In this document: one piece after another, positions 1 to 56,990 of the stretch | Numbering within the stretch: position 1 is the first letter of the stretch | Layout of the letters: every line of letters begins with the position of its first letter | Source of the DNA: Fragilariopsis cylindrus CCMP1102 | Taxonomy: Eukaryota > Bacillariophyta > Bacillariophyceae > Bacillariales > Bacillariaceae | Assembly (NCBI GenBank): GCA_900095095.1 | Contig: FMBT01000337.1 | Span: 236,669-300,668, forward strand | Reading direction: 5' to 3' | DNA: 64,000 nucleotides | Made by a program: the position numbers and the translations under genes | Notes under the pieces: generated by a model | Databases searched by the model: none | Told to the model about the DNA's origin: nothing | What the model saw: only the letters and a program-made list of their open reading frames with translations

Positions 1-240
1 CCTGTTAATAAATTGAATACACAACTGTTAGAGTTGAGTGCCGAAAGTGCTGCCTTAACGGATGTGATGTACTTTTTAGATCGTGGTATGTATATGAATC
101 AAATTGATTGTACGACACATCTGAAAATGATACGTAAGCTTGCCAAAAGACAATTTCTGATTCGAGCACATTTGATTAAAATTAATCAATATACTGTTAG
201 TCAACAGCAGCAACAACAACAACAACAGCAAGTAAATTAA
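1..240 (+). CDS. VPS23: ESCRT-I subunit VPS23/TSG101, C-terminal end (5' part outside window)
   Basis: The frame is open from base 1 and ends at a TAA at 238-240, so only the last 79 codons are seen. The segment ALTDVMYFLDRGM, then IDCTTHLKMIRKLAKRQF and LIRAHLIKI, lines up with the steadiness box of TSG101/Vps23 (human pattern: D-E-A-I-F-Y-L, then ID...FLKHVR.LSRKQF.LRAL). In other eukaryotes this region packs against VPS28 and VPS37 in the ESCRT-I core, which sorts ubiquitinated cargo into multivesicular bodies. A polyglutamine tail of about ten residues follows the steadiness box; most family members end soon after the box, so the tail is an extension. The UEV domain expected at the N-terminus is outside the window. 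The family call is confident despite the short length because the spacing of conserved positions is gap-free. Confidence 0.8.
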   Translation, partial: PVNKLNTQLLELSAESAALTDVMYFLDRGMYMNQIDCTTHLKMIRKLAKRQFLIRAHLIKINQYTVSQQQQQQQQQQVN

Positions 241-1047: not shown

Positions 1048-4000
1048 ATGTTCCAAAGAAATCTTCATTCCAAGAAAAAAGCGCTGGAGTCATCCTCGTC
1101 ATCGATTCTATCCTCCGACATCGTCGATAATATTGAGAAAGACAAGAACGCAAATCGATTCAATACGAAGTTGACGAGAATAATAAATCTCCATCGAAGG
1201 TTGCTGCTAAGATTATTTTGTCTTCTGTCCTTTACTTTGGTAACATTAAATCTATGGTATCAGCCTCAGCCCACCCCAAGACGAATACCATGATGCAACA
1301 TATTATATCAGTGCCAACTCTACGGATAACGTCATCATTTCAACGCAACAGCAACGAACGAAGCAACAAAATTTCATCATACAACATGGTTTGAATCAGA
1401 ATCCAATCGCAAACCATGCATGTGACGGATATAGAGGGATATACCATATTGAAAAGGGTGACATCGGTGGGGCGGCTGGAACTGTTTTCTTTCAATTTGT
1501 TATCGGTCAAATTATATGGGCGGAGAAATATAATTTCAAACCTTGGGTGTACCTTAATAACGTTAGTCACATCGTTTATGATCCTATAGTTCACGGAAAT
1601 AATACCGGTGTGAACTTTACGATGCAAAAGGGTACGGAAATTTCATACATTCAACGGCCGATGGGACATAGAAGAGATGCGTATCCAGGACAAACCGTTG
1701 TGAATAATCCTGACAATTTGCGATCTTTTCATTATAATTTTGATGGAAATGGGGTTTGGGATAATTACTTTGAACCTATATCTGATTTTATTCCCGGTGA
1801 TAAATCGTGTCAAGATAAACCCCTAGTTACTATGGACTTATACCAAGTAACACCAGGCGTTCATGGATTTTCTGGTGCACCAAAATGTTGGAGGTACGAA
1901 TATCTTCCAGATTATATAACAAAGCCACATATACCCCTGAATGACTGGTTGGCACCTCAACGTCAATCTGCCCACGATGTATTGAAAAGATATATCCGAT
2001 TTAAGCCTCATATTAAAGCCAAAGCAGAATATGTTAATCCTTCCTGTTCCATCGAGACTAATAATGCATGTCTTGGGATTCATATTCGACATTCTGATAA
2101 GGCCGCTGGTCGACGAATACTTGATACGGATGAATTTTTACCGTACGTGAAAGCCTTTTTAGATGCTGGAGGGAAATGGATATACCTTGCGACAGATTCG
2201 GAGAAAGTTGTTGAACACATCAAAACTACATGGCCAGAGAATGTTCTAAAAGTTATTCGATCAATGGGAGATGACGTGGTTCGTTCAAATGACGAACAGG
2301 CTGTATTTGATATTGGTTCCCATCATCGTACCAATACAGAAATTTTAGTTGAGATCCAAGCTTTATCATATTGTCAATTTATGATTCATGGACTTAGCGC
2401 AGTAACTGAATCCAGTATATGGATCAATATTGATTTGCATTACACATCCGTAAATTTAGAAGATCCTGATCATTCCAACGAAAATGAATTTGGGGATCTG
2501 GTGGGAAAGGTACTGACTGGTGGGAATGCTAGTCAAATTTTGGAGAAAAGAAATTCCATCAATAATAATAATATTAATAATTGGTGGATGCCTAAATCAT
2601 ACGAAGTGCAATTTTCAACGACCACTCTAAATCAAAACCAAAATCAACTGCCGCATACTCAAGCATGTGATGACTCTACGAGTGGCATTCTTCATATATC
2701 GCACGTTGGTACGAATGCAGGTACCGGAGTAGCCTTCTTCACATCTGTTTTGAACCAACTCTTGTACGCAAAGAAAAATAATCTTACGCCATGGATTCAC
2801 TTGAGTAACGAATCGAAATTGATCTACGATGATGAAATCCACGGGGCAGCATCAGGGGGAGTCTCGGTGATTGAAGACATTCAAGATGTATTGATGATTA
2901 CCATGTGGAGAATGACAACATCAACAGCTCATTATTATACCCTGGTCCTGTGGTCGTTGAAAGTAGTAGACAGAAAAAAATATCACACTTCGTGGAAATG
3001 GCATCTGGACAAGCTATTTCCGTGGTGTCTCAGACTTTGTTCCAGAGAGTAAATCTTGTTCTGACAAGCCAGTTCTTTCCATGGATGAAGGTATGGTTTC
3101 TGCTATGAACTCGTGGAGTCCTTGGTCAAGCAAGGCCTGGCAGTATGACGATATTCCGAATGAATTCTGGAATCCGAAGGGTTTGACTTTGAAATCGTGG
3201 CTTGAACCAAGAGGATAAAAGCCAATGATATTGTCAAAAGATATTACAAATTCCAGCCTTTTATTGTTGAACGAGCTCAACAAGTGAACCCTTTCAATTC
3301 AACACCTTGTCTTGCTGTACATTTACTCAATACCGACAAGGAAGGAATACATCGGGAAAAATTTCCCCCCAACAAGTTTCGGGAATACTTCGACGCATTT
3401 GCTCGTGCCGGAGGTAAGCATATTTATATTGCCTCCGATTCAAGTCGTCCATTAGAATACATTATGGAGCATTTCCCATCTAATATACAAAAAATGATTC
3501 GGACTCAGGGTCCGTATGTTGTGCGGTCATCCTGGAAATGGCCTCCTCATATGCTTGAGAATCATCATCGTACCAACTCTGAAGCTCTCGTTGATATATT
3601 GGCGATGTCGAAATGCCAACTTCTATTGCACGGTAATAGTGCAATATCTGAGGCTACAATATACTTGAATTTAAATCTTCACAACAATAGTGTCAATATG
3701 GAAGATCCTGATAGGTTGAGTGTTAAAGAATTTGAAGCCTTGGCTCGACGAGTAGTAGAAATTCCAAGTGATGAGGCAACAACTGTCAATGCAACGAAAC
3801 TTCAACAAAGGTCTACTACAAAAATGAATGCTACAAAGGGTAATCTCCCTCCTCCTCCTGAGAATAATAACGTAGGAATTATTAAGGGGAATCATGATCG
3901 GAAATGTAGAAGAAATGCTATCGTTTATCTAGCACAGAAAAAACACTCTAGTTATGAAAGGGATAGTTATGGAAATTTACTAAAATCATTGGAATTAATG

Positions 4001-5107
4001 AATACAAATTATCTTTCTGTTCACAACCATCAGAATAATACAGATGTAATAATATTCCATACTGATGATTTCAATCAAGACGATATGGATATAATGGAAA
4101 CTAAATTCGGTTCATCTTTTCGAGAAGGACTTTATTTTATCAATCTACAAAATACATCATACTGGCAACGTCCAGTTGGCACCGTAACGACAATCCTTCT
4201 GCTGATTGGTATGCATATCCACTTTTCTCAGAAGGATACCGACAAATGATGCATTGGTATGCCATCGATATATGGCGTTTTTTCAAAGATTACGGAAGGA
4301 ACAACAATTGTTCGTATGAATATATAATGCGTTTTGATGAAGATTCTTTTCTAAGATCAAAATTAGATTATGATATATTTGATTATATGAAAAAGAATGA
4401 CTATATTATGGTTTTCGTCTTTGTTCGTATGAGATGCAAGTAACACAACGGATATGGACAATTTGGACTAAAATGACATCGAAGAAAGGATCACAAGTAC
4501 CACCACCGATACGTGATATTGATTTGAATATGTGTGGTATATACAATAATTTTTTCGTTACAAAATTATCCTTTTTTCAAGATGACAAAGTACAACGTTT
4601 TTTGAAATTAGTTGATCGACAAGGAATGATATACCGGAGACGATTAGGTGATTTAATGATCCATTCTATGGCGGTATATGCATTCTCACCATCTGAAAAG
4701 ATACATCGATTTTTGGACTTTACATACGAGCATAGTACAATTAATACAACAACTGGTTGTGTTATTTGGGGTGGTATCCAAGCTGGATATAATGATCCAA
4801 ATTCAAATAAAACATTAGATAAGTTTTATCAAGAAAAGTATTAGATCATAATTGTGCAACAACAACATCAGCAATAAGAAGTCCTCATAATCCGCCACCA
4901 CTGGCAGTCATCGATACATCTTACTTGATCCAAGATGATTTAAGTCCAACTTATCAACATCATCTTCCATCAGAATATGCTTCTACTACTACTACTACTA
5001 CTACTACTTTGAATAAAAATGAAAATGGGTATGGTAAGAAATTGAAACTAAAAACGATCATGGCTGGTAAAGTTGAATATCCTGGTCAAGGATTGTTAAG
5101 TGGTTAG
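1048..5107 (+). CDS. Giant type II membrane glycosyltransferase: two GT23-like modules plus a GT15-like module (frame broken)
   Basis: The ATG at 1048 opens a short cytosolic part and a single membrane anchor (LLLRLFCLLSFTLVTLNLW, about 1201-1260), as in Golgi enzymes. Module A (about 1420-2500) carries HIRHSDK, a match to the GDP-fucose-binding HxRRTDK motif of alpha-1,6-fucosyltransferases (GT23/FUT8, NodZ), followed by YLATDS and HHRTNTE. Module B (about 2665-3760) repeats the same order (IYIASDS, HHRTNSE, NMEDPD), but its motif reads HLLNTDK, so the arginine is lost. Module C (about 3900-4850) resembles GT15 alpha-1,2-mannosyltransferases (Kre2/Mnt1): YEYIMRFDEDSF, LNMCGIYNNFF, RRLGDLMIHSMAVY. 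A tail runs to the stop ending at 5107. The reading frame is interrupted at about 1275, 2880, 2960, 3000, 3217, 4180, 4400 and 4836; at 4400 and 4836 one missing base in a homopolymer explains the break. Fold assignment of A and B is by motif only. It may be an intact gene with sequence errors or a recent pseudogene. Confidence 0.7.
4980..5007. repeat. CTA/TAC trinucleotide microsatellite in coding sequence
   Basis: About nine ACT units encode a polythreonine run near the glycosyltransferase C-terminus. Confidence 0.8.
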
Positions 5108-46078: not shown

Positions 46079-48383
46079 TTACAATTTAGATGAAACTTTT
46101 TTTGTTTCTTGAAAAGACCTAGGTTGAAGTATTCTTCCACAGTCAAATCCATCATGACACAACGTTTCAGCAGATCACTGGGAGCATAATAGTCAGTATG
46201 AGGGAATCTTTCGAGAATTCTTGAATCGTCGTAAAAGGTATTTGAGTCCAACTTCATGGTCCGCCCACCACATCGGACCTCCTTTATACACCGGCCAGCC
46301 ATATCCGTAAACATAAACTACGTCAATGTCTGACGGCTCCCTGCAATTCCTTCTTCCAAACATTTGAACCCTTCGTTGACCATCGGGAATAAAGCTCGCT
46401 CCACAATCTGCTGATCCGAACAGGAATCTGACCTCTTTTGGCATATTTGCGAATCAAGTTATCAACCTCCTTACTCGGCAACGATTTACGTCCTCTTCCA
46501 ATCTTCTTGTCATAATCATACCAACCCTTACCCGACTTTTGGCCAAGCCGCTTGAAATCTGATACGATAACATCTGCGACGTCAGGGTATCTAGCTGGTT
46601 TGTTTTTTGAAATAATGTCACCATTAGATACCCAACCTCTTTGTTTTCGGATGTTGTAACCAATGTCTAAACCTGCCATGTCTGCCATTTGGAACGGGCC
46701 TAGAGCTATTCCAAAATTTAAGATAGCTTTGTCGACAGATGACACCGTAGCTACTCCTTCCTCTAGTAGCAATGTAGTTTCTGCACCATATGATATTAAC
46801 AATCTATTTCCGACAAATCCATCACAATTTCCTACGACAACACCAGTCTTTCCAATACGTTTTGTAAGTTGTTGCATCACACAGGTTGTTTCTGTTGAAG
46901 TTGCTGTCCCAACCACAATTTCGACTAATTTCATAACATGCGCAGGAGAGAAAAAATGCCAACCAGCAAAGAGTGGTCGACGAGAAATGGATACGCTTGA
47001 GGCCATTTCATCGATATCTAAAGTGGAAGTATTGCTTAAAAGAATACAACCGGCCGGGGTTATCTTATCCAATGAACTGAAAATCTTCTTCTTGATCTTC
47101 ATATTTTCAATAACAGCTTCAACAACCAATGAACAAGTTGATAGATCTTCAAATCTTTGGGTAGGCTTCAAAGATTTAATCATTCTCTTGGCATTTTCTT
47201 CTGATATTCTACCTCGTTTTACGTACGATTGGATAGTACCCTTTAAAAATACAACACCTTTGTCCAACGATTCTTTATATACATCAACTAAATGCACCGT
47301 GAAGCCTGCTTGAAGAAGAACTAGACATATTCCACTTCCCATAAGTCCGGCTCCTATCACAGCAGCAGTAACAGTTTTGAAAGATTTCTGTAACAACGGA
47401 TGATTATTGTTGTAGTTATTATTTCCAAGAATTCTCTGTGCCTTACGAACAGCGAAGAAGCCATGTCGTCGTGCTATACCTTGACTTCCACGAAGTGTTT
47501 TAAAAAATTGTTCCAACTCGATTGCAGAACCTTCATCAATTGGTAAACGACACGCTTTAACAGCTTCAAGGGCTGCCCATACACCTTCGCCACCCATTTG
47601 CATAGGTGGAAGTTTCTTAGATGCTATTTCAACAATCATCTCTAATTCACTATCCGATTCTTTGATTCTCATCTTTCCAACACGTCGATCATCGAGTGGC
47701 ATAAGTTCAGCCCACTTAGCATACCTCTTTGCACAACCGATTAGTGAATCCTTCTCCTCCGATGATGATGATGCTGCCAAGCCAACAACGTGATCTACTA
47801 AACCGAATTTTTTCGCCTCCTTTGCTCCGATTGATTTTGCAGTTAGAATCATTTCAAGTGCTTTTGGCACTGTGACCAATCTAGGTAATCGTTGTGTCCC
47901 ACCGGCACCGGGGATGACACCTACAAGAACCTCAGGAAGACCAAAATTACCCGTCGTGTCAGAAATACGATAATGACAACTTAAAGCAACCTCCAGACCA
48001 CCACCTAATGCGTTTCCTGAAATAGCTGCAACAACTGGCTTATTACAATTTTCGATCTTTTTTACTAATTCAATCAAAGGAAAGAATGGTCTTCCGTCAT
48101 TTTTATTAATACCCGCCGTCGTTGGTGGTGCTTTACTAACTGATCCAAATTCGGTCAAATCTGCACCTGCCGAAAAATTACTTCTATTCGATGAAGATAA
48201 TCCGCCATATAAAATTACACTTCCAACTGATGAATTACTTTCTGCTTCCTCTAATGCTTCCCAAATCAATTGACGAAGCTTCAAACCGAGAGGATTTAGT
48301 GGATTATTACTACCAACAACGGAAGAAAAGTTTACAACTAATGTTGTTTTACTACTAATGGAAGGTTTGCTGCTGATTACCAT
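46079..48383 (-). CDS. Peroxisomal multifunctional enzyme: enoyl-CoA hydratase / 3-hydroxyacyl-CoA dehydrogenase (frame broken near 3' end)
   Basis: The ATG at 48381-48383 gives MVISSKPSISS. The crotonase domain has FSAGADLTEF, GNALGGGLEVALSCHYRIS, the oxyanion region, and GVIPGAGGTQRLPRL with the hydratase glutamate. The 3-hydroxyacyl-CoA dehydrogenase domain starts VIGAGLMGSGICLVLLQAG (NAD-binding) and has SNTSTLDI, the catalytic His in WHFFSPAHVMKLVEI, and NCDGFVGNRLL. The second dehydrogenase-C domain follows (VYGYGWPVYKGGPM, PSDLLKRCVMMDLTVEEYF). Frame changes at about 46445, 46375 and 46220 break this C-terminal part. One more, at the TTTT run near 46113, changes the ending to ETKKVSSKL-stop (46079-46081), a perfect PTS1 signal. 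The enzyme carries out the second and third steps of peroxisomal fatty-acid beta-oxidation; total length is about 768 residues, as in EHHADH/MFP-2-type plant MFPs. Confidence 0.93.
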
Positions 48384-49866: not shown

Positions 49867-51610
49867 CTAGGCATGTGCAACAATAACAAGATCATCAATC
49901 TTCATCATCATTGATACACATTCCGTTGCTAATTGGATTGCAGAGGTAGAAACCATAAGTGGTTGGACAACATTCAATTCGTACATGTTAGAAACCTTTC
50001 CTTTCTTCACATTTATACCAGCTCCCTTAATACCTTCTGCATGTTGCTTACGAAGTTCTGTAACTACATCGATTGGTTTCATTCCTGCATTCTCAGCAAG
50101 AGTATATGGAATTACTTCCAATGCATCAGCGAATGCTTGAAAGCAATACGCGTCCGTACCTGTTAGTTCCTGTGAATACTTATGCAGTCTCAAGGATGCT
50201 TCTGTTTCAGCAGCCCCACCTCCAGCAATCATAAATCGTTTCTTCACGAAACATCGTACGACACATTGTGCATCATGGAGACTGCGTTCGGCTTCACCTA
50301 GAACAAACTCATTGGACCCCCGCAATAAGACCGTCATTGTTTTACCAAGATTTTGAACACCAGTGAACTTGACAACCTTTGTTGATCCACCCTCCATCAA
50401 TACATCAGAGACATGGTCCGCCATTCCAAGCTTATCTGCTTTCATTTGATCTGGATGAGCAACAGGTTGACATCCAAGAGTTCGACAAATAAATTCAATA
50501 TCGTTTCGGTTAATATCTGTCACAACAAGAATACCCATCTTCGCCAAAAAATGTAACGACAACTCATTGTAGGCATCTCTCAGGATAGATTTTTGGATCA
50601 ATAAAACATTAGCACCAGACTTCTTAATTGCTTTACATTGTCCTAAAATATATTTTCGTTCCTCTCGAAGGATGCGATCCATAGCAGCATAATCGCTCAC
50701 AACTACGCTGTTGTCCATATCTGTTTTAGGTGCTGATAAGCAATATTGAATGAGAGCAATCTTAGCATTTTCCTTACTAGTTGGACCACCCGCCGTTTTA
50801 GTTGCTCCCTTAGTTATTACTAGACCTTGAACTAGTTCGGTATCGTCGACGGTACCACCTAATTGTGTAACAAGTCGAATATCTTTAAGATCAACATTAG
50901 TCGATGTCTCAATGTCATCAACAACACCAAGGACAGAGTCTACCGCAATGGGAGCTAAAAGATCAGAGTTCTTGGCCACAACCTTACTACTCAAACATGT
51001 TTCAACTGCACTCAATAATGATTCTCTATCATTTAATTCAACAGGTATAGCAATTTCTTCTAGAATTTCTACCGCCTTGTCTGCAGCACGAAGAAACGAA
51101 CCTGCAATTCCCATGGGATGAATACCCTTTGCCAATAACGCAGAACATGCATTCAACAATGCACCTGCCAACACAACAACAGTCGTGGTCCCATCTCCCG
51201 CCTCGATGTCTTGTGATTGTGATAGATCGACTAACATCTTAGCAGCAGGATGAAGTACTTTCATTTTACTAAGAATAGTAGCACCATCATTACTGATCAA
51301 AATTTCACCATTTTCCAATTGAAGCAATTTATCCATACCACGTGGCCCAAGTGACGTTCGAACAGCATTTGCTACTGCCTGAAGGAGAAAAAAAAGAAAA
51401 ATTGATTATGGTATTGAATACAAAATAGTTTTAAACGTGAGATACGATCGATTTATACACTGCCGGTTAAAGATGACGACACATAAGTATCTTGCCTGTC
51501 CGTCCAACATAACAAAAAATGCTATTTACCTTGGCTGAAACGATATTCGACGTACGAACATCTTTTCCTTTCGAACGATCTTGGTATATTTCTCCTGTTG
51601 CTCGTCCCAT
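49867..51610 (-). CDS. CCT4: T-complex protein 1 subunit delta (CCT4), cytosolic chaperonin
   Basis: Exon 1 (51530-51610) encodes [20 protein letters not shown] and NIVSAK; the intron 51379-51529 (GTAAAT...TCAG) joins to [20 protein letters not shown]. Group II chaperonin signatures follow: [25 protein letters not shown] (ATP-binding and the catalytic Asp), the apical domain ([20 protein letters not shown]) and [13 protein letters not shown]. The protein is 530 residues, normal for CCT delta, and the frame is intact. The SLGPRGMDK and [21 protein letters not shown] segments favour the delta subunit over other CCT subunits. It works in the eight-subunit TRiC ring folding actin and tubulin. Stop at 49867-49869. 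Confidence 0.95.
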
Positions 51611-54788: not shown

Positions 54789-56990
54789 TTACGTCAAATT
54801 CGACTCCATTATATTTGATTCGCCATCGAGCGCCGCTATCCTTTCCCTTTGCTTTCGACTTTGATAGATATAATAAATCACGCCACTAAATAGAATAGCA
54901 ACAGAAAAAATATTTGAGAAGATGCTGTGTGAACCCGACGCATAGTCTATCCAAACCAACATAAAGTCGTAAAATCCATGGAAGAGAACACCAGGAAGTA
55001 TGATTCTTCCCAGCCTGATTCTTCTATCATTCTCCAAATCTCGTTTACATACCCCGATAGACTGTATGGCCATTGCGATCGGATGGACGGGGAATAAGGA
55101 ACGAGCTAGAAGAATGAATATCCTAGAGACATGGTATATCTTTCCATAAACAAAGACATATACCAAATTTTCACAACAGGAAAACCCCAAACCCACAGCA
55201 ACCATAGACACAGTAATAGCAGCTCCTCGAGACTTAAGGCTTCGATTCTGATCGGGAAAGGAAGTTACAGATGGTTCTTTTTTGACATCACCATTCTTGT
55301 CGAAGCATTTCATAGCCTCCTCAACCTCAACCTTGCTGTAGAAATCGGGATGATCTATCATACGGAAACCAAAATATTTGCATGTTTCTTCTATCAATGC
55401 TGCGAGGATAAAGGAAACGACCAATAGATATAAGGTGTACACTATCGGGTGATCATTGGCATAGGCTTTCAGGAATTTACGGTAATTAACTCCTCCGTAA
55501 TTGACCTGTTGCGCGGACATCCAAGAATTTCCAAATCCTGGCTCAGTAACAAGTTGATACCCGTTATCTTCCACAACTTCTATACCTGATAAAGCCATGC
55601 AGATAGCCATAATCATTCGGACCATTAGACCTAATATTAATTCAAAAAATACAGCAAGCGTCGTGCTGAGACAGAATCCTGCCGCAAAAAACTTGATTAT
55701 AGCATCAATGGATATATCTTTTGTGTGCTTCCAATATACGAAGGCAAGAAGGATGAAAGACTGAAGCAACGTCAAACAAAAAATGATGTAGTTCTTGGGT
55801 CCAAATGTGTGATTCAATCCTTTCGAGAGCAAACTCCAAACAAGTAAGGAGACCAACGCGATAGTGCAATTCTTTATAGTCTGCTTTGAAAATGATGATA
55901 GTCGATTCCACCATAATGAAGTTGGCCTTTCCTTACTATGACGGGCTTCATATATGTTAGGGTAGTATTCCATCATTGGTTGCATAGTAATGTAATCGAT
56001 CCTTAACATACCAGGACTTACAAAATCCTCGATGTCTCTACTTTCTTGCGCGACGCCACAGAACCCGCAACATGTAATGTACATACAGCACAATTTTGCA
56101 CAACATATATTGGTAAAACAATCGAATGCTCTAGTGCAGCATGTGATTTCTTCCTCTGCATCATAATGAAAGTTTGAAGGTCGGTCAGTTTTATAGCAGC
56201 CACAGCAGAATGCATGGGCATTACTTATATCTGAACCTGTTTGACCCATAAGATATTCCTCATCGTCATCGTCATCTGAATCCAATTCATCGTCCGAACC
56301 ATCGTTGCTGTTATTGTTCTTGCGGTTCTTTCGTCGAAAACGTCCTGAACTAAGATTTGTATGCTTTGCCCATAATAGATTCCTTCTTACTTGTCTCCTC
56401 TTCCATGAACCTTTACCACATTGAGTGCAAAAATAGAGTAGACTTACGAGGACGAATCCGTAGCATAACATTTCATTTATCCAAGGATCTGGAATATTAA
56501 ATGCCGTAAAAAATGCCAGCCCAAGTATAAGCGTCGGAAATATCACATGAACGAAAAAACGACGGGATAATCCAGGAGGTTTAATCCCTTGCACCATATA
56601 TCGATTTCGATCAGCTTGCAAGCAACCGAAACACGCTATAGAACAACAGTCGACTCGTTCTTTATCTGTATATCGGTACATATCAGCGATGGACGTATTA
56701 AAACCTCGATAATCACAGTCGTCGTCTTCAGAAGCTTCAGAAGGACGTTCTCGCAATGATCTGAAATTTTTCACTCTATTCGATTCTTTCTCAGATAAAG
56801 AATGATAATTCATTTCAGTACCGGAATCCTCCTTAGTTGATAGTTCAATTTCACTTTCACTACTTGTACCTCTGATACCATCCTTATTGTCGTACTCGAT
56901 GGCATCGGCACTTCTTGTTGACCTCTGACTACTTCGAGTTGCTATTGCTTTCCGAATACCTATCATATTTCGTCGTTCAAGTTGATTCAT
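54789..56990 (-). CDS. PrsW-like intramembrane protease with cysteine-rich N-terminal region
   Basis: This is an intact single exon of 733 codons, ATG at 56988-56990. The N-terminal 110 residues are polar and disordered. Two membrane segments (FFVHVIFPTLILGLAFFTAF and YGFVLVSLLYFC) and a Cys-rich loop (about residues 255-325, FCCGCYKTDRPSNF, CCTRAFDCFTNICCAKLCC) follow. The C-terminal membrane domain has the PrsW motifs: EETCKYFGFRMI (E-E-x-x-K, about residue 530), GLGFSCCENLVYVF (E, about 610), RSLFPVHPIAMAI (H, about 640) and GVLFHGFYDFML (H-x-x-x-D, about 670). In Bacillus, PrsW cleaves the anti-sigma factor RsiW; related membrane proteases in eukaryotes are less studied. Substrate and location here are unknown. 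About ten hydrophobic helices are visible. Confidence 0.85.
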   Translation of the reverse strand: MNQLERRNMIGIRKAIATRSSQRSTRSADAIEYDNKDGIRGTSSESEIELSTKEDSGTEMNYHSLSEKESNRVKNFRSLRERPSEASEDDDCDYRGFNTSIADMYRYTDKERVDCCSIACFGCLQADRNRYMVQGIKPPGLSRRFFVHVIFPTLILGLAFFTAFNIPDPWINEMLCYGFVLVSLLYFCTQCGKGSWKRRQVRRNLLWAKHTNLSSGRFRRKNRKNNNSNDGSDDELDSDDDDDEEYLMGQTGSDISNAHAFCCGCYKTDRPSNFHYDAEEEITCCTRAFDCFTNICCAKLCCMYITCCGFCGVAQESRDIEDFVSPGMLRIDYITMQPMMEYYPNIYEARHSKERPTSLWWNRLSSFSKQTIKNCTIALVSLLVWSLLSKGLNHTFGPKNYIIFCLTLLQSFILLAFVYWKHTKDISIDAIIKFFAAGFCLSTTLAVFFELILGLMVRMIMAICMALSGIEVVEDNGYQLVTEPGFGNSWMSAQQVNYGGVNYRKFLKAYANDHPIVYTLYLLVVSFILAALIEETCKYFGFRMIDHPDFYSKVEVEEAMKCFDKNGDVKKEPSVTSFPDQNRSLKSRGAAITVSMVAVGLGFSCCENLVYVFVYGKIYHVSRIFILLARSLFPVHPIAMAIQSIGVCKRDLENDRRIRLGRIILPGVLFHGFYDFMLVWIDYASGSHSIFSNIFSVAILFSGVIYYIYQSRKQRERIAALDGESNIMESNLT

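What the first reader, a model, noticed from the sequence alone, without database searches (positions are those of the whole stretch)
1048..5107. Three-module glycosyltransferase: two GT23-like domains and a GT15-like domain on one chain
Modules A and B share order and motifs (HIRHSDK versus HLLNTDK, YLATDS versus IYIASDS, HHRTNTE versus HHRTNSE) and so look like an internal duplication. They are followed by a GT15-type mannosyltransferase core with RFDEDSF and IYNNFF. Combining fucosyltransferase-like and alpha-1,2-mannosyltransferase-like modules behind one Golgi anchor would be a novel architecture, perhaps making a compound cell-wall or frustule-coat glycan. The fold of modules A and B is inferred from motifs.
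Basis: partly seen in the sequence, partly recalled or inferred. Interest (0 to 1): 0.75.

Follow-up and report, generated by a model that had tools for sequence, protein, structure and literature searches.

The report
Three-enzyme sugar-transferase chain of diatoms
This gene, from what is likely a diatom genome (broken by frame changes in this assembly, intact in close relatives), is for one long protein in which two copies of a module resembling fucose-attaching enzymes are joined to a module of the mannose-attaching GT15 family; it is predicted to sit in the Golgi and would likely build a secreted sugar coat with fucose and mannose, which matters because a 2024 survey reported none of this fucose-attaching family in diatoms.

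The parts
1048..5107 (+). whole gene, ATG to stop, interrupted by seven frame changes in this assembly
   Evidence: ends match the intact 1352-aa relative P0001
1201..1257 (+). single predicted membrane anchor near the N-terminus (type II arrangement)
   Evidence: best 19-residue hydropathy 1.86; 47 of 63 scored three-module chains have such a segment
1412..2494 (+). module A, GT23-like
   Evidence: P0001 121-481; FUT8 profile and fold matches of relatives
2081..2101 (+). HIRHSDK, equivalent of FUT8 H363-K369 donor motif
2495..2650 (+). A-B linker, inside one open frame (1250-3049)
2651..3736 (+). module B, GT23-like, faster changing; three frame changes fall inside it
   Evidence: P0001 534-896; fold match to FUT8 in the P0005 model
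3320..3340 (+). HLLNTDK, donor motif of B with Leu where FUT8 has R365
3737..3892 (+). B-C linker, inside one open frame (3206-4246)
3893..4826 (+). module C, GT15 (Pfam PF01793)
   Evidence: piece 4401-4841: 49.8 bits, cut-off 25; P0001: 64 bits; fold match of the P0005 model to Ktr4/Kre2p
4330..4350 (+). RFDEDSF, equivalent of the Kre2p R245/E247/D249 region
4719..4733 (+). FTYEH, His equivalent to the metal ligand H388 of Kre2p
4838..5104 (+). conserved C-terminal tail ending ...KVEYPGQGLLSG

Best explanation
It is one polypeptide that strings two GT23-like modules (A, B) and one GT15 module (C) behind a predicted Golgi membrane anchor, and it would likely act as a two-donor enzyme in which A adds fucose from GDP-fucose and C adds mannose from GDP-mannose to the same secreted glycan. 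Shown: order, fold matches of models, conservation, the kept donor-site residues of A and C, the kinship of A and B, and the faster change of B. Inferred: Golgi location, the actual donor sugars, and that handing on the acceptor is eased because the active sites share one chain. B is inferred to hold or space the acceptor rather than to be a second active enzyme, at least in this genome, where its donor arginine is replaced by leucine. The product is inferred to be extracellular mucilage or frustule-coat polysaccharide; both sugars are reported in diatom EPS, which is assembled in the Golgi (PMC5932028, passages).
Against: FUT8's catalytic base E373 has no acidic counterpart in A (0 of 74 with D/E at K369+1 to +6; Arg at +4 in 74 of 74), and the D453 position is Glu in 71 of 74 A modules, so A may use another base, another GDP-sugar, or have changed function. 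In C the E329 position is Phe, and H323 and W325 are Gly and Tyr, in 60 of 60. B keeps all four donor residues in 52 of 78, which argues against B being inert everywhere. Fucan in diatoms is itself doubted in PMC11468063, and its reports concern Chaetoceros and Thalassiosira, which I recall as centric diatoms, whereas the named hosts of this chain are pennate. The window's copy is broken in frame, and five of seven breaks fall at the same protein place in the second contig copy. Inter-module arrangement is unsure (pTM 0.59).
Confidence: 0.5

Rival explanations
1. All three modules are active and the chain is a polymerase that alternates sugars, like animal LARGE or EXT co-polymerases (recalled), making a fucomannan-type backbone.
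For: B keeps all four donor residues in 52 of 78 chains and D at the D453 position in 76 of 78; A and B are kept together in 82 three-module and 16 two-module proteins of the 101.
Against: In the window's lineage B has Leu for R365, and 9 of 78 B modules lack that Arg; B changes faster than A.
Confidence: 0.2
2. A and B have the fucosyltransferase fold but do another job: another GDP-sugar, or carbohydrate binding, with C the only catalyst or the only GDP-mannose user.
For: No acidic counterpart of the base E373 in A, D453 position Glu in 71 of 74 A modules, R366 replaced by His or Gln in 73 of 74 A modules and by Asn in 59 of 78 B modules.
Against: H363/R365/D368/K369/D409 kept in 74 of 74 A modules and 79 of 79 single-module relatives, more than binding alone would seem to need.
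Confidence: 0.2
3. In this particular genome the gene is decaying; the intact relatives are functional but this copy is not.
For: Seven frame changes, five at the same protein place in both contig copies. Other genes of the assembly fare better: three HSP70 matches span about 580 of 599 positions without a stop, and 3 of 35 HSP70 match rows hold an in-frame stop; the single-module paralogue is open over 583 codons in both its copies.
Against: Seven of the window's eight pieces are 96-100% identical to P0001; the eighth scores 65% in tblastn because that row runs past the frame change. All eight are stop-free. 13 of 14 frame changes in the two copies go one step the same way, as base losses in a long-read consensus would, and the copies differ by 2 mismatches but 15 gaps over 7716 columns. 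The lost B arginine is shared with intact P0001.
Confidence: 0.1
4. Two or three neighbouring genes were joined by the reader.
For: Frame changes in the window; single-module and two-module relatives exist.
Against: Both linkers lie in single open frames in both contig copies; 82 of 101 relatives, including an MMETSP ORF marked complete and proteins of named diatoms, are one chain.
Confidence: 0.02

Closest known systems
FUT8, animal core alpha-1,6-fucosyltransferase (CAZy GT23)
   Same: Fold of A and B; HxR..DK donor motif, Y-L-A-T-D motif, acidic residue at the D453 position
   Different: No acidic counterpart of the E373 base in A; R366 is His or Gln in 73 of 74 A modules and Asn in 59 of 78 B modules; duplicated and fused to a GT15 module
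Brown algal GT23 candidates for fucan synthesis (PMC11468063, passages)
   Same: Stramenopile, distant from FUT8, donor residues H363/R365/D368/K369 reported conserved
   Different: A figure legend there calls Lys369 and E373 conserved, whereas A lacks E373; the paper says no GT23 was detected in diatoms; no sequence comparison with the brown algal proteins was made here
NodZ (bacterial fucosyltransferase, GT23)
   Different: Single module, weak sequence match (E 0.05)
Kre2p/Mnt1p and Ktr4 mannosyltransferases (GT15)
   Different: E247 is Asp, E329 is Phe, H323 is Gly, W325 is Tyr in 60 of 60; stands behind two other modules
LARGE1 and EXT proteins, Golgi chains with two transferase modules (recalled)
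   Same: Several transferase modules behind one anchor
   Different: Other families; the diatom modules are predicted to use GDP-sugars; three modules

Membership tests
GT15 (for module C) | Pfam PF01793 above curated cut-off | tested here: met
   49.8 bits for window piece 4401-4841, 64 bits for P0001, cut-off 25; window piece 4105-4440 alone 14.4 bits
GT15 (for module C) | GT-A fold of Kre2p/Ktr4 | tested here: met
GT15 (for module C) | Mn ligands E247 and H388 (Kre2p numbering, by my count; CaMnt1 Glu236/His377 in PMC11077754) | tested here: met
   Asp replaces Glu in 60 of 60, His kept in 60 of 60; met with a Glu-to-Asp change
GT15 (for module C) | Glu at position 329 | tested here: not met
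   Phe in 60 of 60. Not treated as defining: a nucleophile role for E329 is recalled only, and PMC11077754 (passages) favours an SNi-like mechanism for Mnt1
GT15 (for module C) | alpha-mannosyl transfer from GDP-mannose | not testable with these tools
   needs an enzyme assay
GT23 (for modules A and B) | FUT8-type fold | tested here: met
GT23 (for modules A and B) | significant profile match to GT23 proteins | tested here: met
   A1 profile vs FUT8 E 2e-7, best stretch in module A; A3 profile of single modules vs FUT8 E 3.6e-8. No separate profile of B was run against the PDB
GT23 (for modules A and B) | Pfam FUT8_N_cat above curated cut-off (27.6 bits) | tested here: inconclusive
   window 13.6 bits; of 7 relatives 5 matched at 14.8-26.6 bits and 2 not at all; 12 of 52 single-module relatives matched at E 0.01 or better; precomputed PF19745.6 is listed for 17 of 101 relatives
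GT23 (for modules A and B) | donor residues H363, R365, D368, K369 | tested here: met
   A 74 of 74; B 52 of 78, and window B lacks R365: met for A, not for B of the window
GT23 (for modules A and B) | catalytic base E373 | tested here: not met
   0 of 74 A modules have D/E at K369+1 to +6; 28 of 74 scored B and 47 of 79 single modules do. E373 as base: PMC12930516 (passages). No model coordinates were at hand to look for it in space
GT23 (for modules A and B) | S469 | tested here: inconclusive
   the profile aligns the conserved Ser with S468 and ends there; the next, conserved Ala would face S469 (my count)
GT23 (for modules A and B) | alpha-1,6-fucosyl transfer | not testable with these tools
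   needs an enzyme assay
O-fucosyltransferases GT65/GT68 and plant GT37 | closest fold | tested here: inconclusive
   lower Z than FUT8: POFUT2 14.9, POFUT1 13.7, AtFUT1 13.0 versus 18.5; same fold group

The most novel reading that the evidence does not exclude
A single Golgi polypeptide that is a three-site assembly line for a fucomannan: the missing fucosyltransferase of pennate diatom fucose-rich polysaccharide, in which a duplicated GT23-type enzyme with a new catalytic base works in cis with a GT15 mannosyltransferase of new acceptor specificity.
Probability: 0.3. Interest if true: 0.82.

Novelty: new variant of a known kind. Interest (0 to 1): 0.62.

Why it matters
Diatom 'fucan' is discussed as a polymer that carries carbon down during blooms (title in the reference list of PMC11468063), yet its synthases are unknown and the same paper doubts its exact nature: it detected no GT23 in the diatom genomes it screened and an average of three GT10. 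Here is a conserved, testable set of GT23-like proteins whose named sources are diatoms, probably missed because most score under the Pfam cut-off, and many of them physically fused to a GT15 mannosyltransferase. That gives named genes to express or knock out.

Tried and rejected
Separate genes: rejected because both linkers lie in single open frames and 82 of 101 relatives are single chains. True FUT8 in this genome: the Pfam FUT8 search of the whole genome found nothing at E 0.001, but its controls were silent too, so it does not show absence. Filing A and B as GT23: not done because E373 was tested and not met. S469: I first counted the Ser column as S469, then withdrew that after counting residues in the alignment. 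PDB profile search of A1 also listed S100-A9 chains at E 0.12-0.43 on a short stretch, taken as chance. DUF7164 touched C of one relative at 15.8 bits, under its 27-bit cut-off. Literature: ten searches ran (59 and 62 for mechanism). I saw listings, and passages of nine papers; none of what I saw describes the three-module chain, other listed papers were not opened, and only open-licence PMC papers are held. PMC12507850 (passages) says that GT23 genes are predicted in microalgae of different phyla (Mocsai et al. 2025), diatoms not named in the passage. Inter-module geometry was not interpreted (pTM 0.59).

Full report
What is there. The window lies at positions 236669-300668 of contig C608 of a 67.9-Mb, 818-contig genome. 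Named relatives are diatoms; the family Bacillariaceae is my inference. Window 1048-5107 (+) encodes a chain whose closest relative, P0001, is 97% identical over the full query, 1352 residues, with the same first and last residues. In the window the frame changes seven times relative to P0001, leaving eight overlapping stop-free pieces. A second copy on contig C574 is 99.75% identical over 7716 alignment columns, with 2 mismatches and 15 gaps, and also shows seven frame changes: five at the same protein place as in the window, two private to each copy. Thirteen of the fourteen go one step in the same direction, which suits base losses in a long-read consensus. Against this, other genes of the assembly fare better: three HSP70 matches span about 580 of 599 positions without a stop and 3 of 35 HSP70 rows hold a stop, and the single-module paralogue is open over 583 codons on contigs C711 and C760. 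Decay of this copy is therefore not excluded. Either way the junctions are sound: the A-B linker and the B-C linker each lie in one open frame in both copies.

Distribution. Of the 195 proteins of the first two searches 83 carry A, B and C in order, 22 A-B only, 83 a single A-type module (some with other parts in front), 7 other orders. Of the 101 of the first search, 82 are A-B-C and 16 A-B. Names given by sources include Nitzschia inconspicua, Seminavis robusta, Mayamaea pseudoterrestris, Fistulifera solaris, Cylindrotheca fusiformis and Amphora coffeaeformis; P0005 is labelled Psemu1, which I recall as Pseudo-nitzschia multiseries. P0023 is an MMETSP ORF marked complete. Where sources give a function it is mostly a mannosyltransferase (one says ribonuclease HI), so A and B have gone unnamed. 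In this genome the GT15 profile finds only this locus and its C574 copy at E 0.001, a lower bound.

Evolution. In a quick tree of 93 modules (SH-aLRT only, root not inferred) all 31 B modules lie on one side of a starred branch and the 62 A-type and single modules on the other; the 19 A modules of three-module chains form one starred group with those of 8 of the 12 two-module proteins. A and B therefore parted once, long ago. Some two-module proteins sit inside the three-module group, which suggests later loss of C. Over 60 full chains mean pairwise identity is 0.60 for A, 0.46 for B and 0.61 for C; A exceeds B in 1739 of 1770 pairs and C exceeds B in 1770 of 1770.

Active sites. Scored were modules over 300 residues: 74 of the 78 A and all 78 B modules of plain three-module chains, and 79 of 83 single modules. 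FUT8 residues H363, R365, D368, K369 and D409 have equivalents in 74 of 74 A modules and 79 of 79 single modules; B has all of H/R/D/K in 52 of 78, and the window's B has Leu for R365 like P0001, one of 9 of 78 without that Arg. PMC11468063 (passages) uses H363, R365, D368, K369 and S469 to argue that brown algal GT23s are genuine fucosyltransferases; I could not settle S469. The base of FUT8, Glu373 (PMC12930516, passages), has no acidic counterpart in A: 0 of 74 have D or E in the six residues after K369, and Arg stands at +4 in 74 of 74. The D453 position is Glu in 71 of 74 A modules but Asp in 76 of 78 B and 77 of 79 single modules. For C, 60 aligned chains with all modules over 250 residues were scored: the equivalents of Kre2p Y220, R245, N327, R358, D361 and H388 are kept and E247 is Asp in 60 of 60, while H323, W325, S326, E329 and A362 are Gly, Tyr, Asn, Phe and Leu in 60 of 60. 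PMC11077754 (passages) assigns the matching Mnt1 residues: metal Glu236 and His377, donor Arg234, Asp350, Asn316 and Tyr209 (kept, Glu as Asp), donor Ser315 and Ala351 (changed), acceptor His312 and Trp314 (changed), acceptor Arg347 (kept). So C looks like a GDP-mannose enzyme with another acceptor.

How it most likely works. One hydrophobic segment near the N-terminus (47 of 63 scored chains; the 63 are those of 78 that begin with Met and have 40 or more residues before A) predicts a type II Golgi anchor with all modules in the lumen. A would use GDP-fucose, C GDP-mannose, B would hold or space the acceptor. The genome has a piece matching GDP-mannose 4,6-dehydratase (275.9 bits over about half the model; the whole-protein cut-off of 415 is not reached by this piece) and two GT10 matches. 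Diatom EPS is assembled in the Golgi and contains mannose and fucose (PMC5932028, passages). All of this paragraph beyond the counts is inference.

Novelty. PMC11468063 states that no GT23 was detected in the diatom genomes screened and an average of three GT10; it also doubts whether diatom fucans are what antibodies suggest, and the reports it cites concern Chaetoceros and Thalassiosira. PMC12507850 (passages) says GT23 genes are predicted in microalgae of different phyla, diatoms not named there. PMC6536626 (passages) lists three GT10 fucosyltransferases in Phaeodactylum. My searches listed no paper that I could see to describe the fused chain, in an open-licence library only and mostly from listings. 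The modules are of known kinds; the duplicated GT23-like plus GT15 chain is a new variant.

Noticed in passing
P0148, P0137: A-type module behind another domain; in P0148 Pfam O-FucT matches the front part (28.5 bits, cut-off 31.5), suggesting a second kind of fucosyltransferase fusion.
   Followed up: partly
P0104, P0100: Two A-type modules in tandem; in the tree they lie among the single modules, so apart from the A/B split.
   Followed up: partly
P0052 and P0091 (Mayamaea pseudoterrestris, tags 730700 and 730800): A three-module and a two-module protein with consecutive tags and the same longest contig length: probably neighbours.
   Followed up: no
L003 (C574:65500-75400); also C711/C760, C221/C498, C355/C679: Several loci appear twice almost identically, so the assembly seems to keep duplicate contigs or haplotypes.
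   Followed up: partly
window 1-240; L003 about 770-2383: Upstream neighbour looks by eye like a UEV/TSG101 (Vps23)-type protein; no profile was run.
   Followed up: no
window 49870-51336 (-), 46326-48383 (-), 54792-56990 (-): Pfam matches to Cpn60/TCP-1, to enoyl-CoA hydratase plus 3-hydroxyacyl-CoA dehydrogenase, and to a PrsW-type protease.
   Followed up: no
window 4838-5104: Conserved tail (L.TI.AG.VE.P..G.LSG) after the GT15 core with no assigned role.
   Followed up: partly
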